This document shows, in pieces, positions 1 through 16,227 of a DNA stretch of 64,000 nucleotides. The number at the start of each line of letters is the position of its first letter. Position 1 is the first letter of the stretch. The position numbers were made by a program, and so were the translations under genes. Under the pieces are notes generated by a model that worked only from the letters and a program-made list of their open reading frames with translations, had not been told where the DNA came from and searched no databases. Source of the stretch: Acetivibrio saccincola (GTDB lineage Bacteria; Bacillota; Clostridia; Acetivibrionales; Acetivibrionaceae); contig NZ_CP025197.1 in NCBI RefSeq assembly GCF_002844395.1, positions 2,666,001 to 2,730,000 of the forward strand, given 5' to 3'.

Positions 1-485
1 CTAAATAAAACATCCTTTTCCCTTTCTGAAAAAAAGAATTTAATCAAAGAATTTTCCACCTGAAAATTTTTTTCAACATCCACCCCTATTCTTTTTTCTG
101 ACACCACTCCTATGCAGTACGGAAAAGAGTGGGTGATGGACACAGTTATATCAGGGTATTGATGAATATAAGGGGCAGAATCTGCCCCTTTTAAAACATC
201 CACACAGCTTAAATCCACTATGCACTTTCTTAAAGCTTTATATTCAAAAAGTGCTTTTTTTACCGCATACCTGCCGCAAAGCCACTGGAGTTTTTTTTTA
301 TAAACTTTAAAACTCTCTAAATACCCTGCCTCCTTCTCAGACAGCAGGGAAAAGCACCTGCTTTCCCCAAGCTGCAATCTTTCATGCATCTTACCCATAT
401 CCACCAATGCATAATTTAAGTCAATATGTTTTTTTATACTTCCCATATTAAGTTCAATTAAATGCTTTGTCCTTTGTGGTATCAT
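1..485 (-). CDS. 4'-phosphopantetheinyl transferase (Sfp/HetI type), C-terminus cut by window edge
   Basis: Reading the minus strand from the ATG at 485 gives 161 codons that stay open to the left edge. The protein would transfer phosphopantetheine from CoA to carrier-protein domains. Visible family motifs are WLCGRYAVKKAL (about 68-79), an ITHS block (117-120), IGVDVEK (133-139, metal-binding Asp136 and Glu138) and FFSEREK (151-157, with Glu154). The downstream W-x-KEA motif lies outside the window. Its start overlaps the stop of the giant synthase gene by 4 nt (ATGA), so the two are probably translationally coupled, and the synthase's carrier domains are the obvious substrates. The motifs are seen directly; the partner assignment is inference. 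Confidence 0.85.
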   Translation of the reverse strand, partial: MIPQRTKHLIELNMGSIKKHIDLNYALVDMGKMHERLQLGESRCFSLLSEKEAGYLESFKVYKKKLQWLCGRYAVKKALFEYKALRKCIVDLSCVDVLKGADSAPYIHQYPDITVSITHSFPYCIGVVSEKRIGVDVEKNFQVENSLIKFFFSEREKDVLF

Positions 486-3400
486 AAGCTAATCCGCCTC
501 TTTACAACATTTCTTACATAGTAACATAATTCATCGTACTCATTTAACATTATTACATCGTATGTTTTATATTCATCCCCATCCTCTTTTAGCCTTGCAT
601 AAACTTTATAGCTGCATACATCCCTTGGGACTTTAACAACCCCGATTTCATCCACCTTCCATGGCAGATACACTCTTTCATTGTTATAAGCAGTATGTAT
701 GCCGCACACCTGGAATATGGAATCCATAAAAGCAGGGTTAATTAACAGCTGGTCAAGTTTATACTCTTTATTGTTAATTTCCTCTGACGGAAGTGTCTTA
801 ATTGTAAGCACGGCACCCTTGCTGTTTCTCAAAAACCTGTTGTTTTCCGGATCTTCATCCATAAACAGAGTTCCTAATACTATGGCATTTTTGGTTATTC
901 TAAGCTGGCTTTCAAGGGCAGCCCTTGTAGAACCCTCTTCCCCGGGGTGGTGTTCTATATCCCTTATATCTAATAAATCACTGTAATCTGTAAGTTTTGT
1001 ACTTATCTCCATGCTGTTTAAATTAATAAGTTTTGAGATACCGTATTTAGAATCTAAATATGTATATACGTCTCCTTTAAAACTCTCTTCCCCTGTCTTT
1101 TTCACTTCCAATATAATTTCCTGGGGTCTTTCATAAAAGAGTTTACAAGGATTGTTAAGCATTAAGTTTTTAAAACAATACTGGTCTTTTCTTCCGTAAA
1201 TCATGCTGTGGTACTGGGCAAACATTTCCATAAATGCAACTGCCGGCATCAGAGGTGTTTCCCCTAACCTGTGATGGTTTATAATAGGGTCTCTTTTAAC
1301 TGAAAATACTTTAAAAGCCTTTTCAATAAAATCGTTTCTTTTGCTCACCCACTCAATAAAAGGAGTAGGGCTGTGCTTTTTATAAGCCATGTCTTCCGGC
1401 ATTATAAACCCAAGACCTTTGCTTACAATAATCTCACTTGCATTTGTTTTTCCCTCTAAGAGGTTTATAAACTCATCAGCTCCTCTTTCCGGCTCAATAA
1501 GGTTTAGCCCTATTTCTTCAAAATTCTCTTTTAAGTATTCATTTCTCCAGGCTATACCCACATCCTTCCAGCCAGACCAAGCTATGCTCAGTCCATGGAT
1601 GTTTTTATGCTTTGAGTTTAATGAAGAAATAAAGCTTCCTATAAAACCATTTGCTGCACAGTAGTCCAGCTGCGCCTCATTTCCAAACCTTCCTGAGATG
1701 GAGGAAAACCCAATTACGCTTTTTAGCTCCTTTTTGTCCAAAAGCCTGTAAAGGTTTAGAAGTCCCCTTACCTTTACTGAAAATATTTCATTAAATTCCT
1801 CCACACTCTTATCTTTTAACAGCCTGCTCTTTTCAATTCCTGCCCCGTGAATCAGTACATGGACAGGACCGTTATTTTTAACTGATTCTTTTATAACTTC
1901 TTTAAGCTCCTCATAGTTCCTGACATCACAGGACAAGTACAAAGCTTCATTTCCGTCATCCTTTATTTGATTCATCAGTTTGTAAACGGATACAGCTTTT
2001 TTTACCTTTTCCAGCTCCTTGCTTATCATTACAGGAGTAACTTTTTCATGTTCTTTTTTAAGCCTTTCCATTATTTCTGTTCTTTTGTTTTCTATTTGCT
2101 CCTCATCCAGCTGTGAAAGCTCATCCACATTGCTGTACAACTTAGTACGCCCTATAATGGTAAATTTAGCTCTGTATTTTTTTGACAGCTTCTTTGTTAT
2201 TTCAGAAGTTATACCGTTTCCACCACCTGTAATCAAAAAGTGAATATTTTCAGGGTACTCTGCCTTCTCCAGCTTTCCCCTATCTAAATAGTCGATTTTC
2301 AGCACCATGCGCTTACCCTTTTCATAGCCAATTTCAAAATCAGTAGAGGAACACTCCGTCTCTGCCTTAAGTATAGATGCAATTTCCATAAGGTCGCCTT
2401 CAAAAGCTCCCACATCCACCACTTTTACTATTGAATCCGGCCATTCCTTTCTAAGTCCTTTGTAAAAGCCGCTTAAAGCTCCAAAGAAAGGGTCAGGGAT
2501 TTCCTTTGTATCTTTTGCATATCCATGGCAGCCGTCCATTGAAATTGCACATACAATCCTCAATTTTGGCTGTGGAATTTTTTCACTAAGTTTTTTATAA
2601 AATATGAATCTGGCTCCACCGTTTAAAAACTCCAAAGCCTCTTCTTCCTTTGATATGCTGTCAATATCAAATACCTTACCTATGTGAGTGCAGTCAATTA
2701 TTATGTCTGCATTTTCATGTATGATTTCTAAACTGTTTTCAAAATCTTTAAAGTCTTCATTTTTATTAAATATAAATTCTTTTACAAATTTTGATTGTTC
2801 TTTAAAATAATCTGATATCTTACTTACCGTTTCCTCTTCATCACCTATAATCCATATATTTTTGTTATTTAAATCAAAATCCTTTTCACCTAAAGCTTCT
2901 TCTGCAAATACAGGTATCTGAAGGCTTAAATCTCTTTCAACTTTATGGTATTTTTCTTCCGGCTCTTTTATAGTTTCTGCTTTTATAGCTTCTGCATTTA
3001 AATCTTCTTTTTTTTCATTTTCTTCTCTTATATTGTTTTCTTCACCTGTATTGTTTTCTTCATTCTTTTTTGTGCTATTTTCTTCTTTTGACCCGGTTTT
3101 GTAAAATTTACTTTCTACAAAGTCAATTACATCCCCTATGGTTTTATAGGCGGATATATTTACTTCTGTCTCCTCCGGCATTCCATACTTTTCACCTATA
3201 AGGGAAAATATTGTTGCCTGCTTTACTGTATCTATCCCGAGGTCTGCTTCCATCTCCATATCCTTTTCAAGCATTTCTTCAGGATATTTTGTCACTTCTG
3301 ATATAATTTTTATAACAGCTTCTTCTGCACTAATTTCCGGTTTTGCATCTCCTCCTACATCCTCTTTTTCCATCTGTTTTGTTTCAATCTTCCCGTCTAA

Positions 3401-6400
3401 ATTTTCTTTCTTTTCTTCTTCATTTTTTTCTGCATTTTCATTTATAAGTCCCTTAAAATCCTTTTTTAATCCCTTTACAAAGTCAATTACATCCCCTATG
3501 GTTTTGTAGCTGGATATATTTACTTCTGTCTCCTCCTGCATTCCGTACTTTTCACCTATAAGGGAAAATATTGTTGCCTGCTTTACTGTATCTATTCCGA
3601 GGTCTGCCTCCATCTCCATATCCTTTTCAAGCATTTCCACCGGATATTTTGTCACTTCTGATATAATTCCAAGTACATCTGATTCATAATTGTGGTAAGA
3701 TACAGATTTACCATCCATCTGTACATCCTCATATTGAACTTTTTCTGCACCTGTTTCACCACTTTGGTTTTCTAACAAGTTGCTTTTAAAATCCGGCTTA
3801 CACCTTTGTACATCCGGAAGGCTTTCCCTTTGCTCCTCTTCTCTTCCTTCACCTTCAGCCACAAGGATTCTTCCCTGATTTTTTAACTGCACGTTTTCAA
3901 AGCCTGAAACTTCCTTCAGCCATTTATTATAAGTTTCACTGTCAAAAATCCTGTTGTCTTTGGAGGATATTCTTTCTAAAAGATGGTAGTTGCCCTGTCC
4001 TCCAAAGGCTATAACCATCCTTAGAGCATATCTGAAATTATGCTGTCCCCCCTTAGATATATTGAGACCTTCTAAGGAAGGATCCGGCTCTTTGAAATTT
4101 GGCACCGGTGGTATTTCCTGTCTTAATAGTGCTTTTGCCGCAACAGCCTCTTCTAAAGATGCGCCCATTGTATGCCCTGTCATTCCCTTTGTGTTTACAA
4201 TTTTTATATCCCTGTATCTGTCCCCGAATACATTTTCAAGTGCCATTTTTTCAGTTTCAGCACAGCCACCTTTTTTAGGTGAAAATGTCTCATGGGAAAA
4301 ATACACCGTTTCCTTTGCAATTTCGCTTCTGTTAATTCCATGTTCTTCTTCCATTTTTGAAATAAATCTCTCTAATTCATCACAAAACTTCCTGCCTTCT
4401 ATTTTGGATTGGTGTCCTGCAGTATTGAAAAGATGGGTTCCTAAAATACGGCAAATTCCATTCATACCACGTTTCTTTACATCTTCTTCCTTTTCGATTA
4501 CAAGACCTACAGCACCGGCACCTAGAACCATTCCACTTCTTCTGTTGTCAAAAGGCACAGCCGCTTCAAAAACATTACCATTGTCTGAAGCTGCTCCCAT
4601 ACTTAAGAAACTCGCTCCTACCCACGGAAGCATTTTCTTTGAAGTAGGGTTATCTGCACCTATAACAATCATCCTTCTGGCATGCCCGCCTCTTATCAGG
4701 TCTTCTGCAAGTGTTACGGCAGATGCTGTGGAAGAACATGCAGCACTTATGGTTAAATTAGGACCCATGGCACCTATAAACTGTGCCAGCTTGTTGTTTG
4801 CCAGGGAGGAAATCTGCAATAACAATTGGTGGTTGAATTCATATATATCCTCTTCACCAAAATTATTCATAAGTCTTGAATAGTGGAAATTAAACCAGTC
4901 GGTTAAAACTTTCCTTACCCCGTCATCTTTTACTTTAGAAATTACTTCCTCATAAAAATCTATTAAATCCCTTCTGGTTTTTCTTCCAAATTTACTTGCT
5001 ATATACTTTGATACCTCGGATATAAAAGGTTCAAATCCCGGAAAACCACACGCATATATTATCCCTGTATCCTTTTGCATTTCTTCCGGTAGCACCAGCC
5101 TTCCTTCTAAATAAGCCCCTGAAGACGTAACAATCTTTTCCCTGACAAGAGGTATTTGGGCATCCTTCAATGCCTCATATCCTGCTGCTACCCCTGCGCA
5201 CACATCTAAAGACATTTGATTTATTATCTTTTCATCTATTTTATAGTCATTTAACATGTCAATTTCACCAAGTTTTCCTGCTATTTGAATAACTTCATTA
5301 ATTGCAGAAAGCTTTTTAAATGTAACTTGGTGCTCATTCTTTAAAAGCCTCGTTATGTTTAAATCCAACAAGCTTTCTAACTCGTCATCAGTAAGTTTTT
5401 CAATTAAGTTTTTCCCTTCAAATATGTAATCAAAATTGTCATCTGAAAACACTTTCTTAAAAGTACCGGGAAGTCCTATTGATACTCCGCTATATACAAG
5501 ACTTTCTTTGGCTTTTACTAAACTAGCATTTGAAGTCTTTGAAGTTTCTGACCTAATGTCCTCATTTAAAAGGACATCCCCTTCTATATTGTTTTTTGTC
5601 ACTTTTTTCAAAATTTCCTTTGACGGAACATGCCTTACATTAACGCCTAGGGTAAATAACTGAGCCATAATTGTTTTATAAGACTCAATATCACTTCTTC
5701 CCTTCCTATTGGAAGTTAAAACTGTAACCTCCTTGTCACTTAAAATACTTTTCACAAGGTTTGTAAGTACCGTTGAAGGACCTGATTCAATAAAGACCCT
5801 TACCCCTTTATGGTAAAGGGATAAAATTGCATCTTTAAAATTCACCTTTGAAACAATTTGCTCTTTTAAAATATCCGGAACATCCTTTAACCCTTCCTCT
5901 GTATCCGGGTAAAAGTCCCCTGTATGACACGCCACAACCTTCTCCTTTGGCGCTTGGAAATGATAATTTTTAATTTTGTCATAAAACCTCTCTGATGCAT
6001 CATTCATCAATGGTGTATGAAAACCGTGGGAAACATTAAGCACCCTGGTGTGAATATTCATTTCCTTTAAATATTCCGACACTTTCTCTATTTCCTCAAA
6101 TTTTCCTCCTATAACCGTCTGCTCCGGGGAATTTATATTGGATATACTCACATTAAAACCCTGTTCTTTTATAATTTCTTCAACCTTTTTGCTGTCTGCA
6201 TTTACACTGAGCATAATACCCCTGTCTTGTTCCGGTATGCTGTCAAAGGATAAACCTCTTTCCCCAACAATATTTAAAGCAGTATTTAAATCCAGCATTC
6301 CACTTGCAAAAAGACATGCCATTTCACCTAAACTGTGTCCTATCATGTAATCTGCCTTTACCCCGGACTCAGTCAAAAGTTTATGCATTCCCACATTACT

Positions 6401-8461
6401 TAAAAACATTGCAGGATGAGTGTTTTTTGTATTCTTTAGCACTTCTTCTAATGAACCCTCATCTTCTCCGAATATAAGTGAAGTAATGCCATAACCATAT
6501 TTTGCCTCCCAGAAAGCATCTGCCTGCATATACAATGACTCAACACAGGTGTATTTTTCATACAGCTCCCTTAACATATTAGGGTACTGGGAAGCCTGCC
6601 CCGGAAACATCCATGCCATTTCGTCTGATTTTATGGTTTTTCCTTCCCTGAAAAACACACCTTTTCTATTAAGGGATGTTAAGTCCTTCTTTTCAATACA
6701 TTCATTAAAATATTCCCATTTATCCTTTAAATCATCTAAAGAACTGAATACTATAGCAAGCCTCAAATTATCTTTGGCATAATTTAAAGAATTGTTTATA
6801 AGTACTCCTTCTTCTACCGGCTTGTTTTCTTTTTCTATTAGGTGTAAAAACTTAAGGTATTTGCTCCTGATATCCTCAATTACAGCCCCTGAAAACATTA
6901 AGACTTCATATAATTTATAACTTTCCTGTGAAGCTGTATCTGCTGAATCAAATACACTTGCTGTATTTACAGTATTTACATGTTCATTATTTTTCATTGC
7001 AGCAGGATAAAATCTTTTTACAAATTCAGGTCTGAATTCCTCCATACAAAGATGAAAATCAGCACCTCCAAATCCATATGCACTGACATTTGCCCGTCTT
7101 GGGTGCCAGTTTGTTCCTTCCCATTTTTTCTTCTCAGTGACAATATAAAATGGTGAGTCTTCTATTTTAAGCTTAGGATTTACCTCTTTAACACCTGCAG
7201 TTGGAGGGAGGATTTTATTGTAAAGGGCCAGACAGCTTTTTATCATACCAGGTGCCCCTGATGCATATCTTAAATGGCCTATATTTGATTTTACCGAACC
7301 TAAACCGCAGTAGTTTTTCCTCTTAGCACCTAAATTTAAAAATGCTTCTTTAAGTGCCTCTACTTCAACTTCGTCCCCTACAGATGTGCCGGTTCCATGA
7401 GCCTCCACATACTCAATGGTGTCCACAGGATATCCTGCCATTTTGCATGAACTCTCTATTACCCTTATCTGACCTTCTTTATTAGGAGCGGCAATGCCTT
7501 TACCCTTGCCGTCACTTCCCTGGCCAAAGCCAGATATTATGCCATAAATTTCATCCTTGTCCCTTAATGCATCTTCCAACCTTTTTAAAACCAGCACTCC
7601 CCCGCCCAGTCCGATTACAAAACCATTTGCCCTTTTGTCAAAGGGGAATGAACCATCGGGAGACAGTGCATTGATGCCGGAAAAGACCACCATAGGAATT
7701 TCACTCATTGTAACTTCCACACCGCCGACAAATACTACATCATAGTCTTTTCTCAAAAGTCCTATTACCCCGCAGATGGAAGCCGTCAGTGCAGATGCAC
7801 ATGCAGAATCAACTGTATAAGCCGGTCCTCTGAAGTCAAATACATTACATATTCTCCCTGCAGTTATACTCTGAAGCATACTAGGAGCGCTATCTTCTGT
7901 TATTGGAAATGTACCTTTTATGGATTTTTCCGTTATGTCACTGATTATCTCTTCCAGTTCTTCCGGAGTAAAGGCAGATTTTATTTTAGGGTTATTTTTT
8001 ATATGTTCTCTCACTTTATAATAACTAAGTCTTCTTATAATGCTGTCATAATGTGTTCCAGGTGCTCCCGTGCCAAGAATTACCGCAGTCCGCTCTTTAG
8101 GGATAGGGGATTTAACTGATTGCAATGCCTGGTCCACACAGTATATTGCCGTGTGTTGATTTGGATCCATATATTCAGCTACAGTAGGAGGTATTCTGTA
8201 CTTTCTGCTTAAAGCAGCAAAACTGTCCTTATCAACTAAAGCTCCCACTTTTGTATATGACTTGTCCTGTTTGTTAATCTGCCCGTACATTTCTGGTCTG
8301 TAAAACACTTTTTTGTCAAAAATGTGTTCCGGTAAATCTTTAACAGATACTTTTTTATTTAAAATGTTTTCCCAAAAAGTACTTATATCCGGCGCATCAG
8401 GAAACAACCCACCCATACCAACAATTGCAATTCTCTCGTCAGAATAATAGTATTTTTTCAT
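482..8461 (-). CDS. Iterative type I polyketide/fatty-acid synthase, KS-AT-KS-ACP-ACP-KR-DH
   Basis: This 2659-residue multidomain synthase builds an acyl chain from malonyl-type extenders. KS1 spans about 8-470 (Cys221, His355 in EAHGTGT, His396). The acyltransferase spans about 615-930 (Ser710 in GHSLGE). A second KS spans about 1080-1500 (Cys1242 in AACSSTAS, His1390, His1430). Two carrier domains lie at about 1595-1665 and 1715-1785. A ketoreductase follows at about 1850-2340 (GGGNGI nucleotide site, Tyr2267 and Asn2271). A C-terminal hot-dog dehydratase spans about 2385-2659 (His2396/2397, Asp2580). The architecture resembles PfaA/heterocyst-glycolipid synthases, but the second complete KS is unusual. 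There is no enoylreductase or thioesterase. Both carriers read LGIDTVKQA, with Thr where the attachment Ser is expected. The linkers around the carriers are Glu/Lys/Asn-rich. The gene ends in a 4-nt overlap with the transferase gene. The product is unknown. Confidence 0.9.
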   Translation of the reverse strand: MKKYYYSDERIAIVGMGGLFPDAPDISTFWENILNKKVSVKDLPEHIFDKKVFYRPEMYGQINKQDKSYTKVGALVDKDSFAALSRKYRIPPTVAEYMDPNQHTAIYCVDQALQSVKSPIPKERTAVILGTGAPGTHYDSIIRRLSYYKVREHIKNNPKIKSAFTPEELEEIISDITEKSIKGTFPITEDSAPSMLQSITAGRICNVFDFRGPAYTVDSACASALTASICGVIGLLRKDYDVVFVGGVEVTMSEIPMVVFSGINALSPDGSFPFDKRANGFVIGLGGGVLVLKRLEDALRDKDEIYGIISGFGQGSDGKGKGIAAPNKEGQIRVIESSCKMAGYPVDTIEYVEAHGTGTSVGDEVEVEALKEAFLNLGAKRKNYCGLGSVKSNIGHLRYASGAPGMIKSCLALYNKILPPTAGVKEVNPKLKIEDSPFYIVTEKKKWEGTNWHPRRANVSAYGFGGADFHLCMEEFRPEFVKRFYPAAMKNNEHVNTVNTASVFDSADTASQESYKLYEVLMFSGAVIEDIRSKYLKFLHLIEKENKPVEEGVLINNSLNYAKDNLRLAIVFSSLDDLKDKWEYFNECIEKKDLTSLNRKGVFFREGKTIKSDEMAWMFPGQASQYPNMLRELYEKYTCVESLYMQADAFWEAKYGYGITSLIFGEDEGSLEEVLKNTKNTHPAMFLSNVGMHKLLTESGVKADYMIGHSLGEMACLFASGMLDLNTALNIVGERGLSFDSIPEQDRGIMLSVNADSKKVEEIIKEQGFNVSISNINSPEQTVIGGKFEEIEKVSEYLKEMNIHTRVLNVSHGFHTPLMNDASERFYDKIKNYHFQAPKEKVVACHTGDFYPDTEEGLKDVPDILKEQIVSKVNFKDAILSLYHKGVRVFIESGPSTVLTNLVKSILSDKEVTVLTSNRKGRSDIESYKTIMAQLFTLGVNVRHVPSKEILKKVTKNNIEGDVLLNEDIRSETSKTSNASLVKAKESLVYSGVSIGLPGTFKKVFSDDNFDYIFEGKNLIEKLTDDELESLLDLNITRLLKNEHQVTFKKLSAINEVIQIAGKLGEIDMLNDYKIDEKIINQMSLDVCAGVAAGYEALKDAQIPLVREKIVTSSGAYLEGRLVLPEEMQKDTGIIYACGFPGFEPFISEVSKYIASKFGRKTRRDLIDFYEEVISKVKDDGVRKVLTDWFNFHYSRLMNNFGEEDIYEFNHQLLLQISSLANNKLAQFIGAMGPNLTISAACSSTASAVTLAEDLIRGGHARRMIVIGADNPTSKKMLPWVGASFLSMGAASDNGNVFEAAVPFDNRRSGMVLGAGAVGLVIEKEEDVKKRGMNGICRILGTHLFNTAGHQSKIEGRKFCDELERFISKMEEEHGINRSEIAKETVYFSHETFSPKKGGCAETEKMALENVFGDRYRDIKIVNTKGMTGHTMGASLEEAVAAKALLRQEIPPVPNFKEPDPSLEGLNISKGGQHNFRYALRMVIAFGGQGNYHLLERISSKDNRIFDSETYNKWLKEVSGFENVQLKNQGRILVAEGEGREEEQRESLPDVQRCKPDFKSNLLENQSGETGAEKVQYEDVQMDGKSVSYHNYESDVLGIISEVTKYPVEMLEKDMEMEADLGIDTVKQATIFSLIGEKYGMQEETEVNISSYKTIGDVIDFVKGLKKDFKGLINENAEKNEEEKKENLDGKIETKQMEKEDVGGDAKPEISAEEAVIKIISEVTKYPEEMLEKDMEMEADLGIDTVKQATIFSLIGEKYGMPEETEVNISAYKTIGDVIDFVESKFYKTGSKEENSTKKNEENNTGEENNIREENEKKEDLNAEAIKAETIKEPEEKYHKVERDLSLQIPVFAEEALGEKDFDLNNKNIWIIGDEEETVSKISDYFKEQSKFVKEFIFNKNEDFKDFENSLEIIHENADIIIDCTHIGKVFDIDSISKEEEALEFLNGGARFIFYKKLSEKIPQPKLRIVCAISMDGCHGYAKDTKEIPDPFFGALSGFYKGLRKEWPDSIVKVVDVGAFEGDLMEIASILKAETECSSTDFEIGYEKGKRMVLKIDYLDRGKLEKAEYPENIHFLITGGGNGITSEITKKLSKKYRAKFTIIGRTKLYSNVDELSQLDEEQIENKRTEIMERLKKEHEKVTPVMISKELEKVKKAVSVYKLMNQIKDDGNEALYLSCDVRNYEELKEVIKESVKNNGPVHVLIHGAGIEKSRLLKDKSVEEFNEIFSVKVRGLLNLYRLLDKKELKSVIGFSSISGRFGNEAQLDYCAANGFIGSFISSLNSKHKNIHGLSIAWSGWKDVGIAWRNEYLKENFEEIGLNLIEPERGADEFINLLEGKTNASEIIVSKGLGFIMPEDMAYKKHSPTPFIEWVSKRNDFIEKAFKVFSVKRDPIINHHRLGETPLMPAVAFMEMFAQYHSMIYGRKDQYCFKNLMLNNPCKLFYERPQEIILEVKKTGEESFKGDVYTYLDSKYGISKLINLNSMEISTKLTDYSDLLDIRDIEHHPGEEGSTRAALESQLRITKNAIVLGTLFMDEDPENNRFLRNSKGAVLTIKTLPSEEINNKEYKLDQLLINPAFMDSIFQVCGIHTAYNNERVYLPWKVDEIGVVKVPRDVCSYKVYARLKEDGDEYKTYDVIMLNEYDELCYYVRNVVKRRISL
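3115..3668. repeat. Direct repeat encoding the tandem ACP domains of the synthase
   Basis: The blocks 3115-3308 and 3475-3668 are the same sequence offset by exactly 360 bp. Over the central 180 bp I count about 10 differences, roughly 94% identity, including at silent sites. Each copy encodes one carrier domain with the LGIDTVKQA motif. The near identity indicates a recent in-frame duplication or continuing gene conversion. Confidence 0.9.
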
Positions 8462-8501
8462 TTTAACCCCTCCCCAAAATAATTTTTAAACTTATCTTTG
8501 A

Positions 8502-9497
8502 TTAGCTTATCTTGGTAACTTTCATGAAAAAATTATAAATATCTTTTGATAGTTTAGGTACTCTTAAAATATTGAGATGACCTGCGTGATAAAGACTGAC
8601 GTTTTTTACATTGGTTTTTTCTATAAAGCTTTTGTATTTTTCTTCTTCAATAAGCTGGTCATAAATTGAGTACAAAAGTGCAACAGATTCAAAATCCACA
8701 TCTGTATATGTGCCGTTAAATATCTCCACTTCTTCAAATACAGCTTCTGTTGCCTTCTCATTCCATTTATGTTTTCTAAGATCGTTTCTAATGGATTCTA
8801 ATATATCACTTTCCCATACAAGCCTTTGCAAGCTGCCTACCGGATTAATGAGAACAATGCCTTTAATTCTGTTTTCTATAGCATTTGTCCCATCCTTTAT
8901 AACATAATACTTTAAAGTAACAAATCCACCCATACTGAATCCTACAAGCAACAAAGGCTTTTCATTGGCATGATTTATAAACTGAACACAAGCCTCAACA
9001 TCATAAACAGATTGAATAAAGGCTTTTTTTGTCCTGTACACATCAGCACTTAAGAAATATTCCCCGCTAAAAAGACTGTTTTTAGGCTTTCTTTTATAAT
9101 GATATGGCAGTATCATTATAAAAACATTGAATTTTAATTCATTTAGCATTCTGACTAAAAACGTATAATTCAGTAAATGTTCATCGTATAGTCCATGGAC
9201 AAACAATATATTTCCTATACTATCGTCACAGTAACTACTGTAAAGGTAAATGGTGTTGTTTTCTTTATAAGGTAAGGTAGTGTAAAAAGAAGGTATTTCA
9301 ATAACGTCATAGCCGCCTGGAGCCTTCCCGTATTTCAGTGTGGAAATATCAATTTTTTTGCTGCTTATATTAGCCAGGGATAATTCATCATAGATAAAAT
9401 ATGAATTTACCGGCGAATGACTTACTTTAAAAAGCTTTTCACTTTTGATTTTTTCCATAGCTATGTTGTCAACAAACTTTGAACTTGCTTCGTTCAT
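8502..9497 (-). CDS. Alpha/beta hydrolase, probably releases or processes the synthase product
   Basis: This 331-residue serine hydrolase shows the oxyanion-loop HGLYDE (101-106), the nucleophile elbow GFSMGG (Ser188), a plausible acid Asp280 and His307 in HAGHLNI. It has no signal peptide, so it should be cytoplasmic. The ATG follows a strong GGGAGGGGGGA Shine-Dalgarno stretch. It sits 33 nt downstream of the acyl ligase and 40 nt upstream of the synthase, inside the same minus-strand unit. The synthase carries no thioesterase domain, so an off-loading or acyl-transfer role is a reasonable inference, but the substrate is not shown by the sequence. Confidence 0.8.
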   Translation of the reverse strand: MNEASSKFVDNIAMEKIKSEKLFKVSHSPVNSYFIYDELSLANISSKKIDISTLKYGKAPGGYDVIEIPSFYTTLPYKENNTIYLYSSYCDDSIGNILFVHGLYDEHLLNYTFLVRMLNELKFNVFIMILPYHYKRKPKNSLFSGEYFLSADVYRTKKAFIQSVYDVEACVQFINHANEKPLLLVGFSMGGFVTLKYYVIKDGTNAIENRIKGIVLINPVGSLQRLVWESDILESIRNDLRKHKWNEKATEAVFEEVEIFNGTYTDVDFESVALLYSIYDQLIEEEKYKSFIEKTNVKNVSLYHAGHLNILRVPKLSKDIYNFFMKVTKIS

Positions 9498-9530
9498 AAA
9501 AATCCCCCCTCCCTGCCTTTTAAATGAAAC

Positions 9531-11030
9531 TTATTTTAGGCTTTCCCTGTTTTTCAGTGCTTTCTTGTCTATTTTTCCTACATTGTTTCTTGGTATCACA
9601 TCAATAAATTCAATGGTTTTTGGAATTTTAAAATTTGCAATTTTTCCGGAAAGATACCGTATTAAATCCCTTTCTTTAACATCCGCACCATCTTCTATGA
9701 CAACATATGCCTTTACAACCTCACCATAAAGCGGGTCGCTGATACCGATAGCTGCTGAATCAACAACATTTGGATGGGAATTTAATGCTGACTCAACTTC
9801 TATTGGGGAAATTTTTAAACCTGCAACATTTATAAACTCTGTTTTCCTGCCGCATACAACATAAGAGCCGTCTTCTTTTTTGTAACCTAAATCCCCTGTA
9901 TATACACATCCATCCCTTAGCCTCTCAGCTGTCTCTTCCGGACGGTTGTAATATCCAAGCATCAAACCTCTTCCCCTGACCCTTAACTCTCCTATGGCTC
10001 CGTCTTCCACCACCTGCCCGTTTTCATCCACCACATCTACCTCCAGTATCCCTGTAGGTGGAAAGCCCACATTACCTGAAACATCCGGAAGCTTTGATAT
10101 TCTTGTGGCTATTAAAGTACAAGTTTCCGACAGGCCATATCCCTCATCTAAATATATGCCCACCTTTTCCTTCCACTGTATGGCTGTCTCAGAACTTAAC
10201 GGCGCAGCTGCACAAAATGCCGCCTTTAGCTTTTTAAGTTTTTCTATTCCCTGCTCATACCTTAAAAGCTGCATATAGTGTGTGGGAACACCGTAGATAT
10301 GTGTTATATTTTCCTTTTCTATTGCCTCAACCACTTTTATAGGATGAAAAGATTTTAAAAACACAAGAGCCGCCTTATGTGCCAGGGAAGGAATAAGCAG
10401 TGATATTGAACCAAAGCCATGGGAAAAGGGTACAAAGCAAAGGAGCCTGTCCTCTTCTGTATATTGATACATTCTCATGTCGCTTTTTTCTAAGAATGTA
10501 TAGTAACACCCTGTAGAAAGCATAACCGCCTTTGGGGCTGATGTTGACCCTGAAGTATAAAGAAGCATTGCAAGTTCGTCTTTGTCAAATTTATACATAC
10601 CTGGTTCTTTGTCAATGCTTTGAGTGTTTTTATAAATCCGCCTTATATCTCCTTCCTCAAATATTTCAACTTCCCCCTGGTATACTTTTTTAACACTTTC
10701 CTTATCTAAATGTGTAAATATTAATGACGCTCCGGAGTCCTTTATATAATAAGGAAGCTCATCTGCTTTGTATAAAGGGTCAATAAGGCATATAACACAT
10801 CCTATGTACTGAATTGCCAATAAAGCAATGGCAGCTTCAGCACCGTTATTTAGATGTGTTGCTATAACCATTCCCGGCTTATATCCTTTTGATACTAGAA
10901 AATCCGCTACCTTTATGACCGCATCTTTAAGCTCCCCGAATGTAAGTCTTTCATCTTTTTCTAAATCAACAATTGCTTCGTTATCAATATATTTATCAAT
11001 ACTATCATATAAGAAATCACAGTAATTCAC
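9531..11030 (-). CDS. AMP-forming acyl-CoA/acyl-ACP ligase
   Basis: This 499-residue adenylate-forming enzyme activates a carboxylic acid with ATP and passes it to CoA or a carrier thiol. The phosphate-binding loop LLYTSGSTSAPK lies at about 156-167. The hinge YTGDLG and the GLKISPIEVE block are further down, and the adenylation Lys lies in NVGKIDKK near the C-terminus. Length and motifs match long-chain fatty acid ligases. The start is GTG, chosen because a GGGGGG ribosome site lies 6 nt upstream. It lies directly after the KASIII gene and just before the hydrolase. Context suggests it supplies a starter acyl group to the neighbouring carrier protein or synthase; the acid is unknown. Confidence 0.87.
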   Translation of the reverse strand: MNYCDFLYDSIDKYIDNEAIVDLEKDERLTFGELKDAVIKVADFLVSKGYKPGMVIATHLNNGAEAAIALLAIQYIGCVICLIDPLYKADELPYYIKDSGASLIFTHLDKESVKKVYQGEVEIFEEGDIRRIYKNTQSIDKEPGMYKFDKDELAMLLYTSGSTSAPKAVMLSTGCYYTFLEKSDMRMYQYTEEDRLLCFVPFSHGFGSISLLIPSLAHKAALVFLKSFHPIKVVEAIEKENITHIYGVPTHYMQLLRYEQGIEKLKKLKAAFCAAAPLSSETAIQWKEKVGIYLDEGYGLSETCTLIATRISKLPDVSGNVGFPPTGILEVDVVDENGQVVEDGAIGELRVRGRGLMLGYYNRPEETAERLRDGCVYTGDLGYKKEDGSYVVCGRKTEFINVAGLKISPIEVESALNSHPNVVDSAAIGISDPLYGEVVKAYVVIEDGADVKERDLIRYLSGKIANFKIPKTIEFIDVIPRNNVGKIDKKALKNRESLK

Positions 11031-11056
11031 ATAAATCCCCCCAAAATATAGTATTT

Positions 11057-12112
11057 TTAAAACCTGAAAAGCAATCCCCCACTGCTTGCTCCTGCACCAT
11101 GAGCCAGCATCATTACTAGATCCCCTCTTTTTATTTTGTTTGTCATAATTAATTCATTTAGTATTAAGGGGCTCATGGCTGCCACAGTGTTTCCATACCT
11201 TTCAAATAAACTTAAACTCTTTTCAAAGGGAATTCCTAAAGCTTTTACTTGTGCTTCCCATATCCTGGTTGACTGGTCAGAAGTTATAAAATAATCCACA
11301 TCATCTAAAGTCATACCGGCCATTGACAGGAGTTTTTCTGCTATCATTTTGGTATACTCCACAGCCGAATCTAAAATTACTTTGCCGTCCACTATTTTCA
11401 TGGTTAAAATATCGTCTTCAGTATCACAGAACCCTTTTGCTACCATAGTGGTTCCGCAGGGAATAAAAGCGTTGTCATATAATTTATGATTGGTAAAAAT
11501 ATAAGATGAGAGGAAATGCTTAGTATCAGAAGGTCCCAAAAGCATTGCAACAATGCCGTCCCCAAATAAAAACACCGTTTTGGTACTTGGATTTTTGCAC
11601 TGCTGCGTTCTAGTGGAAGATACTCCTCCTCCCAATATAAGAACATAATCATCCCCTGTAGCAATGTATTTTAATGCCATATCCATTACGTGTACAAAAC
11701 CGCTGCATGCACAAGTGACATCAAAGCCGGGTATTCCTTTTTTGGCTCCAAGCTTTTTTAGTACCGTTACAGCTGAGGCAGGAACATTTTGGGCACTAAT
11801 TAATTTTGTGTATATAATCCTGTCCACCTCTTCAATACTTACATTTGCCCTCTCTAAACACTGGGTAATTGCCTCAGCCATTAAGTCTTCAAAGGTTTCA
11901 TCTTCACTAACCCATCTTCTTTCTTTTATCCCAATGGAAAATTGAACAGCCCTGTCTGTAGCTACATAGTTGTATTTATCAATGATATCCTGATTGGTCA
12001 TAACCTTTTTAGGAACGCCAACACCAGTAGACATAATTCTGGCATATTTATTGATACGTAAAGGTTTTATATCTGGAAATGAAATATCTGAAGAATATGT
12101 ATTTCTTATCAT
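11057..12112 (-). CDS. KASIII (FabH)-like ketosynthase with Cys but without the usual catalytic His
   Basis: This 351-residue protein has the thiolase fold of 3-oxoacyl-ACP synthase III. The nucleophile is present: Cys136 in CACSGF, aligned with FabH FDVAAACAGF. The second triad position is present as Asn308 (GNT). The FabH HQAN motif is replaced by SDQS (278-281), so the decarboxylation His is missing. KASIII relatives lacking His often act as acyltransferases or use non-malonyl partners; that is family knowledge, not shown here. A GGGGGG site lies 4 nt before the ATG. It is downstream of the acyl carrier protein and upstream of the ligase. It may prime the synthase or join two acyl chains. 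Confidence 0.83.
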   Translation of the reverse strand: MIRNTYSSDISFPDIKPLRINKYARIMSTGVGVPKKVMTNQDIIDKYNYVATDRAVQFSIGIKERRWVSEDETFEDLMAEAITQCLERANVSIEEVDRIIYTKLISAQNVPASAVTVLKKLGAKKGIPGFDVTCACSGFVHVMDMALKYIATGDDYVLILGGGVSSTRTQQCKNPSTKTVFLFGDGIVAMLLGPSDTKHFLSSYIFTNHKLYDNAFIPCGTTMVAKGFCDTEDDILTMKIVDGKVILDSAVEYTKMIAEKLLSMAGMTLDDVDYFITSDQSTRIWEAQVKALGIPFEKSLSLFERYGNTVAAMSPLILNELIMTNKIKRGDLVMMLAHGAGASSGGLLFRF

Positions 12113-12221
12113 TTTGCCCCCCTAATATTACATAATGTTATTTTTACTTGAAAATACCTATTAGTATTGCTTTGAATAGTCCTGCATTTCAAACTTCTGT
12201 TTTAGGGCTTAATATGATTTG

Positions 12222-12482
12222 TTAACTTTTTACATTGTTTTTGACATTTATATTTTCTTTAACAAAATCCACAATGTTTTTTAGTACAAATGATTCTGGT
12301 CGCGCGTCCATCATAGGAACTAAAAAAACTTCTGAAAACTTAAAACCTAATTCCACCAATGCTATTGAATCAGCACAAAGATCTTCTACCAAATCTGTTT
12401 CTAAATGCACTTCATCCTCTTCAACACGCAAATAATCAGCTATTATTTCCCTTGCTTTTTGATAAATCTCATCATAAGTCAT
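12222..12482 (-). CDS. Free-standing acyl carrier protein
   Basis: This 86-residue acidic helical protein has the attachment motif DLCADSIALVEL with canonical Ser39. In this it differs from the two carrier domains of the giant synthase, which carry Thr. It lies between the two KASIII-like genes and follows a GGAGGGATG ribosome site. It probably shuttles the starter or finished acyl group between the ligase, the KASIII pair and the synthase, after activation by the transferase encoded at 1-485. It is not the housekeeping acpP by context, since no fab operon genes are adjacent. Confidence 0.88.
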   Translation of the reverse strand: MTYDEIYQKAREIIADYLRVEEDEVHLETDLVEDLCADSIALVELGFKFSEVFLVPMMDARPESFVLKNIVDFVKENINVKNNVKS

Positions 12483-12503
12483 ATTACATCCCTCCCTAAG
12501 TTA

Positions 12504-13553
12504 TTATACTCTGTAGATAATTCCCCCACCGCTTATGCCTTCCCCGTGGGAGATCATCATTACATTCATGCCTTCGGCAATTTTACCTGTGCTGATTCCT
12601 TTATCTATCAACAATGGGAGCATGGCAGACATGGTGTTTCCACAATCTCTTAAAATTGAAATGCTTTTGTCTTCACTAACTCCCAATGTTTCCAAAGTAA
12701 GTTGCCATATTTTTTTGTTGTTTTCTGTGACCAGTACTAAATCAATATCCTCCATTTTAAGTCCGCTTTCTTCAAGTAAGTTTTTTGAAACCACAGAGGT
12801 TGCCTCCCTGAAAAACTCCTCTGCTTCCTTCCAGTTCCCCATTCTATATGTATCATATATGTACGTTAACTCTTCAAAAGGCACCGTTTCATCAGTTCCA
12901 TCCACTGCACTTAAGGGGCTTATGGAAAGTGCCAGATGAGAGTACTCATGATTGGAATAAAAATAGCTTGCTAAAATATGTTGTTCTTCCGTTCTTCCAA
13001 ACAACAAAGAGGCAGAGGCATCGCCAAAGAGAAATGCCACCCTGGGGTCTTTTTTGCTTATAAGTTTTGTATGAATACCCCCGGAGGATAATAGAATGTA
13101 TTCATCCCCTGTATCTATATACCTTGATATCAAATCCACTGAATGTAAAAATGAAGTTATACCGCCGTCCACATCAAAAGCATGCATGGCGGTATTGCTA
13201 TTTAGTTTGCCCTGCAGCCTGCTGGCAGTCATGGGCAATAAATTGTCCCCATAATATTTATTCACTAAAATCCTAGATAAACGGTCAGGTTTTAATCCAT
13301 AGCTATCTAAGCATTTTTTAGCAGATTTTAAAAGCATCTTACTGTCGTCATAAGAATCATCTGCAATATGTCTTGTTTTTACCCCTATTGTCTTTTCAAT
13401 TACACTGCTTTTAAAGGGTAGAGAGTTTTTTTCTATTATTTCCTCATTTGTCAAAACTTTTTCGGGAAAAAATGAGGCTGTAGATAATATTTTGCAAAAC
13501 CTAGTGATGTTTTTTCTTTTGTTTTTTGGAAAATAAAATTTTAAGCCACCCAT
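12504..13553 (-). CDS. KASIII-like protein lacking the active-site Cys and His
   Basis: This 349-residue thiolase-fold protein is recognisably similar to the product of 11057-12112 along its length, sharing FDV, FLFGD, GNT and the same insertions. At the nucleophile position it has Ile132 (FDVDGGITSF) instead of Cys. At the HQAN position it has TENN (276-279). Asn306 of GNT remains. It should therefore not condense acyl groups itself. An analogy is the chain-length-factor partner of type II polyketide synthases, which also lacks Cys and forms a heterodimer with the active subunit. The gene is first in the cluster, preceded by a GGTGGGG site. The degeneracy is seen directly; the heterodimer is inference. 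Confidence 0.8.
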   Translation of the reverse strand: MGGLKFYFPKNKRKNITRFCKILSTASFFPEKVLTNEEIIEKNSLPFKSSVIEKTIGVKTRHIADDSYDDSKMLLKSAKKCLDSYGLKPDRLSRILVNKYYGDNLLPMTASRLQGKLNSNTAMHAFDVDGGITSFLHSVDLISRYIDTGDEYILLSSGGIHTKLISKKDPRVAFLFGDASASLLFGRTEEQHILASYFYSNHEYSHLALSISPLSAVDGTDETVPFEELTYIYDTYRMGNWKEAEEFFREATSVVSKNLLEESGLKMEDIDLVLVTENNKKIWQLTLETLGVSEDKSISILRDCGNTMSAMLPLLIDKGISTGKIAEGMNVMMISHGEGISGGGIIYRV

Positions 13554-13653
13554 TACATCCCCACCATTTTCTTTTTCTTTTTGTTTTCTCTAATTTTTAT
13601 CTATATCCTTTATTTGTTTATTAGTTCATTTCTTGATTTATTTTTAATAATTT

Positions 13654-15228
13654 TTATGACTGCTTTCTCATTATATTTACAAATACCTTTACAATTTCAG
13701 GATCAAAATGAGTACCGGCTTTTTTCTCTAATTCTTTAAGTGCCTGTTCTTCATCCATTTTTCTGCTGTAAGGGCGTTCAGACACCATTGCATCATAAGA
13801 ATCCGCTACACATATTATCCTTGCCCCAAGGCTTATTTCTTCTCCTGCCAGCCCGTCAGGATATCCCTTTCCGTCATATCTTTCATGATGATGACGTACA
13901 TAGTCTGTAAGCATATCCAATTCTTCCAGAGGCTCTAATATATTCTGGCTATACACCGGGTGCTGCCGCAACAGATCCAACTCTTCTTTGGTCAATGGTT
14001 CTCTTTTATTGAGAATAAATCTAGGTATTTCAACTTTACCTATATCATGCAAAAGTGCTGCATACTGAATTATACACACTTCTTTGAAATCAAGCTCCAT
14101 GGCATTTGCTATCTTTACTGCATATGAGGAAACACGTTCACAATGTCCGGATGTATACTTATCCTTAGCTGATATGGTACTAACCAGTCCCTTAAATATA
14201 CCTATTAACTGCTGATGGTCTGAACTAATATGCTTGCGAATTTGTAAAATAGCATCTTTGTATAAATGTACTTTGTCCTTTCCTAAGTTTTTAGCATTGT
14301 AAAGTGCCACATCTGTCTGGTAAATAAGCTCACTTTTGCCCTTAGCCTTATTTGGATATTCTGAAAAACCTATAGACAGTGTAAGTTTATCGTAAAGAAT
14401 TCCATGGTAGTACAAAACTTTTTTTTCTTCGAATTCTTCTTGAATTCTCTTTGCCTCTTTTTCTAAACTTTCTAAACTATCCCCTCTCATTATTATTGCA
14501 AATTCATCCCCGCCATATCTGCATATGTAAGCTTTTTTATCTTTCAATAAACTCTCTAGAATGGCTACTGTTCCTCTTAAAATTTCATCTCCGAAACTAT
14601 GTCCGTATATCTCATTGTACATTTTAAAATTGTCAATATCTATCATCATAAGTCCTAAGGACGACTTTTCTTTATCCGCCATTTCTATTTCCTCATCAAG
14701 GATGCTGTAAAAAAACCTCTGGTTATATGCCCCGGTCAGTTCGTCTGTAATAGCCAGCGTTTCAAGCTTTTTTTTCTGGATATCCTGCTTGTACGAAAGA
14801 ATTGCAACAAAAACAGTTATCACTCCTGTGGAAATTTTAAGAGACAGTCCTAAAATTCCCCAGGGCATCATTTCTAAATTATAATATATTACAAGCATTA
14901 AAACTACATCAAATGTAATAACAAAACCGGCTATAATAAGCCCTAAATATCCAAACCTAAAGGCAAGTATAAAAAGTATGGACGATTGGATATTAGTTAT
15001 AAATCCCCTTAAATTGTGCTCTGTATCAGGAGAAAGCATTATTTGAATTATAGAAAAGGAAAAAGAAATTAAAGTAAACAACAAAAACTCTGTTTTTCTA
15101 AATGCAGTATTTAAGTACTGCTCAATTAAGTGCATAAAATATCCTTTTAGTGAATTCTCTTTCCCGTTTGATAGTAAATTTAGTTTTTTATCCGAATCCC
15201 TTACAATATTGTCCATACTTAACTCCAT
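13654..15228 (-). CDS. Membrane GGDEF/HD-GYP cyclic-di-GMP signalling protein
   Basis: This 524-residue protein has four hydrophobic segments at about 47-146, then a diguanylate cyclase domain with intact GGDEF (239-243), then an HD-GYP phosphodiesterase domain with HDIGK (394-398) and HHERYDGKGYPDGL (447-460). No RxxD product-inhibition motif is visible ahead of GGDEF. Both the synthesis and degradation signatures look complete, so it could make or break cyclic-di-GMP at the membrane. It is separated by 100 bp of AT-rich DNA from the lipid cluster downstream and has no obvious operon partner. A second in-frame Met at residue 5 is an alternative start. Confidence 0.88.
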   Translation of the reverse strand: MELSMDNIVRDSDKKLNLLSNGKENSLKGYFMHLIEQYLNTAFRKTEFLLFTLISFSFSIIQIMLSPDTEHNLRGFITNIQSSILFILAFRFGYLGLIIAGFVITFDVVLMLVIYYNLEMMPWGILGLSLKISTGVITVFVAILSYKQDIQKKKLETLAITDELTGAYNQRFFYSILDEEIEMADKEKSSLGLMMIDIDNFKMYNEIYGHSFGDEILRGTVAILESLLKDKKAYICRYGGDEFAIIMRGDSLESLEKEAKRIQEEFEEKKVLYYHGILYDKLTLSIGFSEYPNKAKGKSELIYQTDVALYNAKNLGKDKVHLYKDAILQIRKHISSDHQQLIGIFKGLVSTISAKDKYTSGHCERVSSYAVKIANAMELDFKEVCIIQYAALLHDIGKVEIPRFILNKREPLTKEELDLLRQHPVYSQNILEPLEELDMLTDYVRHHHERYDGKGYPDGLAGEEISLGARIICVADSYDAMVSERPYSRKMDEEQALKELEKKAGTHFDPEIVKVFVNIMRKQS

Positions 15229-15336
15229 AATTATATAATCCTCTAATACTTATTATACTTCATTTAATGATATATTTCTATAAAAATCTTCACTAATTTC
15301 CCTAAAATATTATAAATTTAACAACAAAAATTCTAT

Positions 15337-16227
15337 TTAGTTAACGTATATATTGTATTTGTTTATGTATTTAATGGGGTTATAGGATTTTTTAGCCCTT
15401 CTGAGGCTTTCTATCCCTAAGTCCTGCTCCCTGTTTACATATAAAATATTCCTTAGCTCATATTCACAAAATTTCTGATTTATAAATGCATAAATACCCT
15501 TTATACTGCTGTTTGCTTTTTCAATATGAATTACTGCATACCGGTTATTTATTATTTCCCCGACGGTATATGCCTCAAATTTTCCGTTAACTTTTATAAG
15601 TGCACCCTTACAGTCTAATTTAGCAAAGTTTTTTAGTACTTCCCTGTTTGCCAGTCTTTCCGGGTACATTATTCCATTTCCTCCGTCTTCTTTCCCCAAA
15701 TTCCACTCTTCATCTATTCTCAGTGCTTCCTCTATATAGGATTCATTTAATTCAACATACTCATATTCATATGTTTTTAAAAAAATATTTATATGATTTC
15801 TTTTGCTGTGATACTTCCTGCCTTTTAAATTTATTAAATTTTCTGTCAAATAAATATAATCACTATTGTCCCTGTCATATTCAATTTTTATCTGACCGTC
15901 TGTATATCTTTCAAAATATTCAAGTTTGCTTTCCTCAACCCTTCTGAATACAAGCCTCCACTCTTTTTCACTGAAATATTCCCTTATAGCATTTACAGAT
16001 GATCTAAACCTTTCAGGAGTATAGCTTCCTATAGGGGCATAGGCAAAGGGCTCTTGACCCTTCGGGGAAGCTATAAGGCATATCATTTCATTTATTTCAA
16101 AAAACTCAAAATTATAAAAATCTCTCCACATAAATAAATTAGTGAAATTCATTTCTGAGGCCATAAAATCACTTTTATTTAAATAGCTGTCAAATAAGTT
16201 TTTATGTTCTAATGTTATTTTCTTCAG
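15337..16227 (-). CDS. DUF2156 protein (GNAT-fold, lysylphosphatidylglycerol synthase C-terminal-like)
   Basis: The first in-frame ATG is at 16164, which would give 275 residues beginning MASEMNFTNLFMW. Upstream in the same frame the codons read KKITLEHKNLFDSYLNKSDF, which matches the way this family normally begins. A GGAGG site (16235-16239) lies 7 nt before a CTG at 16225-16227. I therefore place the start at that CTG, giving 296 residues. The body shows the RKYHSKRNHINIFLKTY block and a VIHIEKAN segment typical of DUF2156. The family has an acyltransferase fold, but its substrate is unknown. The gene stands alone between the GGDEF protein and the peptidase. Confidence 0.75.
   Translation of the reverse strand: MKKITLEHKNLFDSYLNKSDFMASEMNFTNLFMWRDFYNFEFFEINEMICLIASPKGQEPFAYAPIGSYTPERFRSSVNAIREYFSEKEWRLVFRRVEESKLEYFERYTDGQIKIEYDRDNSDYIYLTENLINLKGRKYHSKRNHINIFLKTYEYEYVELNESYIEEALRIDEEWNLGKEDGGNGIMYPERLANREVLKNFAKLDCKGALIKVNGKFEAYTVGEIINNRYAVIHIEKANSSIKGIYAFINQKFCEYELRNILYVNREQDLGIESLRRAKKSYNPIKYINKYNIYVN

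What the first reader, a model, noticed from the sequence alone, without database searches (positions are those of the whole stretch)
1..13553. Uncharacterised lipid/polyketide cluster mixing a giant type I synthase with KASIII-like partners
Seven same-strand genes with short spacing encode two altered KASIII proteins, an ACP, an acyl ligase, a hydrolase, a KS-AT-KS-ACP-ACP-KR-DH synthase and a dedicated phosphopantetheinyl transferase. The set is self-contained: activation, carrier, chain building, release and carrier priming. It resembles PUFA/heterocyst-glycolipid synthases in domain type but matches no pathway I can name. In a strict anaerobe this may make a membrane lipid, a spore or envelope lipid, or a secreted metabolite.
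Basis: partly seen in the sequence, partly recalled or inferred. Interest (0 to 1): 0.75.

Follow-up and report, generated by a model that had tools for sequence, protein, structure and literature searches.

The report
Known yellow cellulose-pigment gene cluster
These seven genes are the published recipe for a yellow, cellulose-binding pigment of cellulose-degrading anaerobic bacteria, so the cluster itself is not new, but its giant enzyme carries an unexplained oddity: threonine where carrier domains normally need serine.

Summary
The window is Herbivorax (Acetivibrio) saccincola GGR1, DSM 101079: its contig has exactly the published length. The seven genes match, in order, cexA-G, the celluxanthene ("yellow affinity substance") cluster of Clostridium thermocellum, tied to the pigment there by gene deletion; the paper lists DSM 101079 among holders. 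The C. thermocellum genome searched here has the same order. The product is an arylpolyene-tetronate-indole pigment, not a membrane or spore lipid.

Two features go unmentioned in the main texts of both product papers. (1) In 51 of 56 carrier domains embedded in the synthase, over 21 loci, threonine replaces the phosphopantetheine serine; none has serine, five have decayed; all four threonine codons occur. The free ACP keeps serine in 18 of 18. In E. coli ACP this change blocks priming. Either the cluster's own transferase primes threonine, or the free ACP carries the chain. (2) CexA lacks the catalytic cysteine in 17 of 17; CexC keeps it but lacks the histidine.

Known cluster; the threonine carriers deserve a test.

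The parts
1..485 (-). CexG: 4'-phosphopantetheinyl transferase, cut by the window edge (complete gene 234 aa, L007:17782-18486)
   Evidence: Pfam ACPS 54.2 bits on the full gene; one of only two ACPS-family matches in the genome; start overlaps the end of cexF by 4 nt
482..8461 (-). CexF: iterative type I PKS, KS-AT-KS-ACP-ACP-KR-DH, 2659 aa, no ER found
   Evidence: Pfam/NCBIfam; catalytic motifs (their meaning recalled) aligned in 15 rows, window included
7028..8437 (-). CexF KS1 (Cys and both His present)
5639..6613 (-). CexF AT (GHSLGE Ser, HGFH His)
3962..5344 (-). CexF KS2 (approximate bounds; Cys and both His present, so not a chain-length factor)
3482..3694 (-). CexF ACP1, attachment site LGIDTVKQ: Thr codon at 3587-3589
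3116..3328 (-). CexF ACP2, attachment site LGIDTVKQ: Thr codon at 3227-3229
   Evidence: predicted helix II starts at this Thr; ACP fold matches
1562..2239 (-). CexF ketoreductase
491..1309 (-). CexF dehydratase
8502..9497 (-). CexE: alpha/beta hydrolase
   Evidence: Pfam Abhydrolase_1; lost or moved in some relatives
9531..11030 (-). CexD: AMP-dependent acyl ligase (GTG start)
   Evidence: Pfam AMP-binding 256 bits
11057..12112 (-). CexC: KASIII-like, Cys-Ser-Asn in place of Cys-His-Asn
12222..12482 (-). CexB: free-standing ACP with the ordinary Ser (ADSIALVEL)
12504..13553 (-). CexA: KASIII-like without the catalytic Cys and His
13654..15228 (-). Conserved neighbour, not among the genes the paper lists for the cluster: GGDEF + HD (HD_5) protein, 100 nt upstream, same strand
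   Evidence: Pfam; beside cex in 9 of 16 mapped loci

Best explanation
This is the celluxanthene (cex; also faf/flavoaffinin) biosynthetic gene cluster of Herbivorax/Acetivibrio saccincola GGR1 (DSM 101079). Published model, inferred there from labelling, gene content and deletion of the PKS gene in C. thermocellum: CexF iteratively extends a phenylacetyl or p-hydroxyphenylacetyl starter with malonyl units; a conjugated arylpolyene results, which fits KR and DH without an ER. [quoted passage not shown] My additions, inferred from sequence: only CexC can form an acyl-cysteine; CexA is a cysteine-less partner of it, much as in PqsB/PqsC (a comparison recalled, not tested); and the embedded carriers of CexF use threonine, most likely primed by CexG. 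CexE's role stays open (the paper suggests regulation). Shown elsewhere: product, building blocks, need for the PKS gene in C. thermocellum. Shown here: identity of the strain, homologues, gene order and residues. Inferred: the product in this strain and every single reaction step.
For: Host contig length 3,604,547 b equals that published for GGR1T, DSM 101079, CP025197. Gene set and letter order in the celluxanthene paper equal the window's. In G013, whose CipA cohesin is identical over 140 residues to the PDB chain 3kcp_A, all seven genes lie in the same order with BLAST identities of CexA 67, B 60, C 62, D 62, E 48, F 58 (best segment, 1782 of 2659 residues), G 50%. 13 of 14 genomes of the family, own included, hold a full or near-full CexF, in pieces in G012. 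My maps show the three arrangements the paper describes: hydrolase between D and F, hydrolase elsewhere (after the PPTase in G038, G072), hydrolase absent (G001, G002, G003). The catalytic motifs of KS1, AT, KS2, KR and DH (meanings recalled) are intact in the window, fitting a non-reduced polyene.
Against: No product data for this strain could be read here: the paper says 'most strains of group I' make the pigment, and its figure 3 and supplement are not held. That DSM 101079 is in group I is my inference from gene order. IorA, a possible source of arylacetyl-CoA, is over cut-off in C. thermocellum but not in this genome. The Thr carriers do not fit textbook priming. No KS tree was built. The CexA model was too poor to use.
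Confidence: 0.95

Rival explanations
1. Same cluster type but a shifted product in this strain (other chain length or other aryl cap), as the paper reports for Pseudobacteroides cellulosolvens.
For: The paper found a distinct congener profile in one group I strain; CexF here is 58% identical to that of C. thermocellum over 1782 residues; IorA is not over cut-off here.
Against: Same gene set, order and catalytic motifs.
Confidence: 0.15
2. An uncharacterised membrane, spore or envelope lipid synthase.
For: CexF's best NCBIfam hit is the PUFA synthase PfaA; Shulse and Allen 2011 listed C. thermocellum as secondary lipid synthase Type T, product unknown (passages).
Against: The C. thermocellum cluster was later tied to a pigment by gene deletion; PfaA cut-off not reached, 727.9 against 1010.1 bits; no pfaD enoyl reductase in this genome.
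Confidence: 0.02
3. The embedded Thr-ACPs of CexF are not primed at all; they are conserved scaffolds, and the free ACP CexB (Ser) carries the growing chain in trans. (A rival on one step inside the best explanation.)
For: E. coli ACP S36T cannot be primed (passages of PMC3340395); CexB keeps Ser in 18 of 18; with Rhodococcus RerA, free ACPs collect polyenes when the embedded ones are inactivated (passages of PMC11563203).
Against: All four Thr codons occur at the site, and ACP domains are as conserved as the catalytic ones while linkers are not; each of 21 loci keeps at least one Thr-ACP while some last copies decay; a Nonomuraea PKS of the same layout also has Thr, at one site.
Confidence: 0.3

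Closest known systems
Celluxanthene (cex) cluster of Clostridium thermocellum DSM 1313, PMC12144888
   Same: All seven gene types in the same order; DSM 101079 is on the paper's list of cexF holders
   Different: Proteins 48-67% identical to those of the C. thermocellum genome searched; two embedded ACPs here, three there; product in this strain not seen by me
Flavoaffinin (faf) cluster, PMC11839114
   Same: Same organism, same molecular formulae and a single candidate type I PKS cluster
   Different: That preprint names the cluster as a strong candidate from feeding experiments; its main text (parts 1 and 2 of 3 read) reports no deletion
Secondary lipid synthase Type T (Shulse and Allen 2011, PMC3098273) and CtheA (Behnken and Hertweck 2012, PMC3250452)
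   Same: Earlier listings of the C. thermocellum synthase; CtheA with two KS domains (passages)
   Different: No product known then
PUFA synthase PfaA and the Beijerinckia (Type P) and Rhodococcus synthases
   Same: KS-AT-(ACP)n-KR style; Beijerinckia also has two annotated KASIII-like genes and a PPTase beside the PKS
   Different: Embedded ACPs have Ser in 18 of 18 domains of five records examined; the window has Thr and a second KS after the AT
Nonomuraea gerenzanensis KS-AT-KS-ACP-KR-DH PKS (L073)
   Same: Same domain layout and a Thr at the one ACP site found
   Different: About 33% identical, followed by a biotin-carboxylase-like protein; product unknown to me

Membership tests
celluxanthene (cex) gene cluster | Seven genes in the order KASIII, ACP, KASIII, AMP-ligase, hydrolase, iterative PKS, PPTase | tested here: met
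celluxanthene (cex) gene cluster | Each protein homologous to its counterpart in C. thermocellum | tested here: met
   7 of 7, 48-67% identity in G013; G013 named through CipA
celluxanthene (cex) gene cluster | KS falls in the CexF clade of a KS tree | not tested
   no tree built; only pairwise similarity
celluxanthene (cex) gene cluster | Strain makes celluxanthenes | not testable with these tools
   paper says most group I strains do; DSM 101079's own trace is in a figure not held
PUFA synthase (PfaA, TIGR02813) | Score above the curated cut-off | tested here: not met
   727.9 bits against 1010.1
PUFA synthase (PfaA, TIGR02813) | Embedded ACPs with LGIDS attachment site (recalled as typical; seen here in Persicobacter L075 and L085) | tested here: not met
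   Thr at both sites
PUFA synthase (PfaA, TIGR02813) | Companion pfaD enoyl reductase (feature list) | tested here: not met
   TIGR02814: 0 matches in the whole genome; 3 of 14 control genomes rang
PUFA synthase (PfaA, TIGR02813) | Companion pfaB acyltransferase; pfaC not searched | tested here: inconclusive
   TIGR02816: 0 matches in the genome, but no control genome rang either
Ordinary FabH-type KASIII | Cys-His-Asn triad | tested here: not met
   CexA I/V/T-T-N in 17 of 17, CexC C-S/T-N in 17 of 17; two other KASIII of this genome have C-H-N

The most novel reading that the evidence does not exclude
The embedded carrier domains of CexF are working threonine-ACPs: the dedicated transferase CexG attaches phosphopantetheine to threonine, a priming that E. 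coli ACP with the same change does not undergo. A lineage of KS-AT-KS iterative synthases would then use threonine instead of serine.
Probability: 0.5. Interest if true: 0.75.

Novelty: already known. Interest (0 to 1): 0.4.

Why it matters
The cluster explains the 'yellow affinity substance' of cellulose-degrading clostridia; that question was answered in print in 2025. What remains open and can be tested directly is how a synthase works whose conserved carrier sites bear the residue that two E. coli studies use to make a non-functional ACP. If threonine is primed, the rule that carrier proteins are primed on serine needs an exception, carrier finders that look for serine would misjudge this family, and CexG would be a new tool enzyme. 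The cysteine-less CexA also narrows the published 'both or one' of two KASIII to CexC as the only possible acyl-cysteine enzyme.

Tried and rejected
Membrane or spore lipid: rejected, see rivals. KS2 as a chain-length factor: rejected, Cys and both His kept. My first reading of the KASIII histidine column was off by one and its FabH row was a wrong frame; one search corrects both. The words 'His->Asp' for CexC in my note are therefore wrong; it is His to Ser or Thr. In one search the script printed L for the second ACP of L052; by eye and it is Gly. CexA structure model: mean pLDDT 43, not used. Promoter/terminator scan of 11000-15400: 26 promoter-like sites against 18.5 +/- 5.3 in shuffles, 1 terminator-like against 2.2, nothing usable. 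Literature searches for threonine-bearing ACPs: searches found 0 papers; one search found 13, none on carrier proteins by title; led to the E. coli S36T papers (two of them looked at by passages). This shows only that these terms found nothing in an open-access library. Of the comparison records fetched, Nostoc L077 and Azospirillum L087 showed no ACP site by pattern and Gloeothece L078 showed one, with Ser; these three were not put into. Distribution outside the phylum could be sampled only through plasmid records.
Full report
OBSERVATION. Seven minus-strand genes fill 1-13553 as described. Pfam names ACP_syn_III_C twice, PP-binding, AMP-binding, Abhydrolase_1, a ketoacyl-synthase/acyltransferase/KR/dehydratase giant, and ACPS. 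The PPTase runs off the left edge; the genome gives the full 234-aa gene. Downstream lie a PGA_cap-family gene and what I read from the sequences as gap-pgk-tpi-gpmI (names mine, no family search).

WHO. The window is G000:C1:2666001-2730000 in one contig of 3,604,547 b. The genome announcement of Herbivorax saccincola GGR1T (DSM 101079, CP025197; whole text read) gives exactly 3,604,547 bp. A genus-mate found by the scan is 'Herbivorax sp. ANBcel31' (L009, same place as G007).

WHAT. I read parts 1 to 3 of 4 of the main text of PMC12144888 and parts 1 and 2 of 3 of PMC11839114; supplements and figures are not held. Ishida et al. 2025 isolate celluxanthenes from C. thermocellum, show by labelling that phenylacetate, acetate and tryptophan are incorporated, delete the PKS gene and lose the pigment. 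Their cluster has two KASIII (CexA, CexC), an ACP (CexB), an AMP-dependent synthetase (CexD), a hydrolase (CexE), a PKS (CexF) and a PPTase (CexG): the window's set, and in letter order the window's order. They list A. saccincola DSM 101079 among holders of cexF orthologues, saw no pronounced growth or cellulose-use difference in the mutant, and report moderate activity against Gram-positive bacteria. Kountz et al. 2025 describe compounds of the same formulae from the same species as flavoaffinins. Earlier, Shulse and Allen 2011 (passages) called the C. thermocellum synthase Type T, and Behnken and Hertweck 2012 (passages) listed it as CtheA with two KS domains.

COMPARISON. It holds all seven genes in order, followed by gap-pgk-tpi as the window's genome does after one extra gene. 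Of 14 family genomes, own included, 13 have a full or near-full CexF, in pieces in G012; G009 does not (all 14 pass E 0.001 because fatty-acid synthase genes also match). Of the 16 loci mapped, 9 show all seven genes in the window's order (L045, L046, L047 with its PPTase cut by the contig end, L048, L049, L051, L054, L011, and L053 in broken frames); L042, L043 and L044 lack only the hydrolase, L041 lacks hydrolase and PPTase, L052 lacks the PPTase, and L050 and L012 are contig-end pieces. G727 (L079) has the full order, and G038 and G072 have the hydrolase after the PPTase. These are the three arrangements the paper calls groups I to III. In samples, CexA is found in 9 of 391 genomes of the class at E 1e-60 and CexF in 3 of 398 of the phylum at E 1e-90, own genome counted in both.

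THE KASIII PAIR. Against Cys-His-Asn in two other KASIII of this genome, CexA reads Ile/Val/Thr-Thr-Asn in 17 of 17 and CexC Cys-Ser/Thr-Asn in 17 of 17 sequences (L053, with broken frames, was left out, as were loci without the gene). The paper leaves open whether both or one KASIII condense. With no cysteine CexA cannot form an acyl-cysteine enzyme, so CexC must, if that step uses one. A CexA/CexC heterodimer is inferred.

THE THREONINE CARRIERS. In CexF both embedded ACPs read LGIDTVKQ. A profile in which the Ser/Thr site was masked finds 56 embedded ACP domains in 21 cex loci of at most 19 genomes: 51 have Thr, none Ser, and 5 have lost the site (Asn twice, Gly once, and the fourth, last domains of L081 and L082 with Asp and Lys; the last three read by eye) (the first, stricter count was 51 Thr in 54). 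The free ACP CexB has Ser in 18 of 18 loci where it was found (15 by script, 3 by eye). Five comparison records have Ser in 18 of 18 embedded ACPs (Beijerinckia 2, Persicobacter 6 and 5, Rhodococcus 3, Embleya 2, which also gave one 6-bit hit in Beijerinckia whose site was not read). Carriers of other PKS/NRPS clusters in two same-family genomes have Ser in 9 of 9 by pattern (the profile scores these stretches poorly, 3 Ser and 3 unread). The five PDB entries shown aligned all have Ser. One Nonomuraea PKS of the same KS-AT-KS layout has Thr at its single found site. The site is not drifting: all four Thr codons are used (ACA 24, ACT 15, ACG 9, ACC 3), and against four genus-mates the two ACP domains are as conserved (61-93%) as the catalytic ones (58-90%) while the linkers around them are at 7-55%. 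A model of ACP2 (mean pLDDT 71.5) starts helix II exactly at the Thr and matches ACP structures (best E about 7e-4, TM-score by target length about 0.8). In E. [quoted passage not shown] The genome has only two ACPS-family matches, one of them CexG. Neither product paper has the words threonine, serine or cysteine in its main text.

MECHANISM. I commit to the published route with two refinements: CexC is the condensing KASIII with CexA as its cysteine-less partner, and the CexF carriers are primed on Thr by CexG (about one in two). The rival for the second point is that CexB carries the chain; the Rhodococcus RerA work shows free ACPs collecting polyenes when the synthase's own are inactivated (passages).

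AGAINST. I could not see this strain's product trace. IorA is over its cut-off in C. thermocellum but not here, so starter supply may differ. Threonine priming has no direct evidence here, and the one experimental precedent seen, E. coli S36T, speaks against it for an ordinary ACP and transferase.

VERDICT. Known cluster, ordinary as a finding; one feature inside it deserves a bench test.

Noticed in passing
window 3587-3589 and 3227-3229 (minus): Threonine in place of the phosphopantetheine serine in both embedded ACPs of the synthase, kept in 51 of 56 such domains across 21 loci with all four Thr codons.
   Followed up: yes
window 13654-15228 (minus): A GGDEF + HD protein sits 100 nt upstream of cexA on the same strand and beside cex in 9 of 16 mapped loci. 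G009, which lacks cex, reads trmL, M20, a 337-aa gene, gap at this site, with no such gene between; its homologues there lie after gpmI (43%) and on another contig (50%). It may regulate or travel with the cluster.
   Followed up: partly
L079 (G727): A genome of the phylum but of another class holds a complete cex set as similar to the window's as that of C. thermocellum (CexA 67%, CexC 65%), which hints at horizontal transfer. No tree was built.
   Followed up: no
L041 and L042 (G001), L050 and L051 (G010): Two cex-like copies in one genome; one copy lacks hydrolase and PPTase (L041) or lies at a contig end (L050).
   Followed up: no
L053 (G012): cexA, cexC, cexD and cexF are broken into several frames; pseudogenes or assembly errors.
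   Followed up: no
L073:7896-15647: Nonomuraea gerenzanensis PKS with the same KS-AT-KS-ACP-KR-DH layout and a Thr-ACP, followed by a biotin-carboxylase-like gene.
   Followed up: partly
G000 whole genome: No indolepyruvate oxidoreductase alpha (TIGR03336) over the cut-off, unlike C. thermocellum, although the pathway needs arylacetate and a tryptophan-derived unit.
   Followed up: no
window 15337-16164 (minus): A protein of the LPG_synthase_C family (phosphatidylglycerol lysyltransferase C-terminal, 184 bits) stands one gene beyond the GGDEF + HD gene here and in L045 and L048.
   Followed up: no
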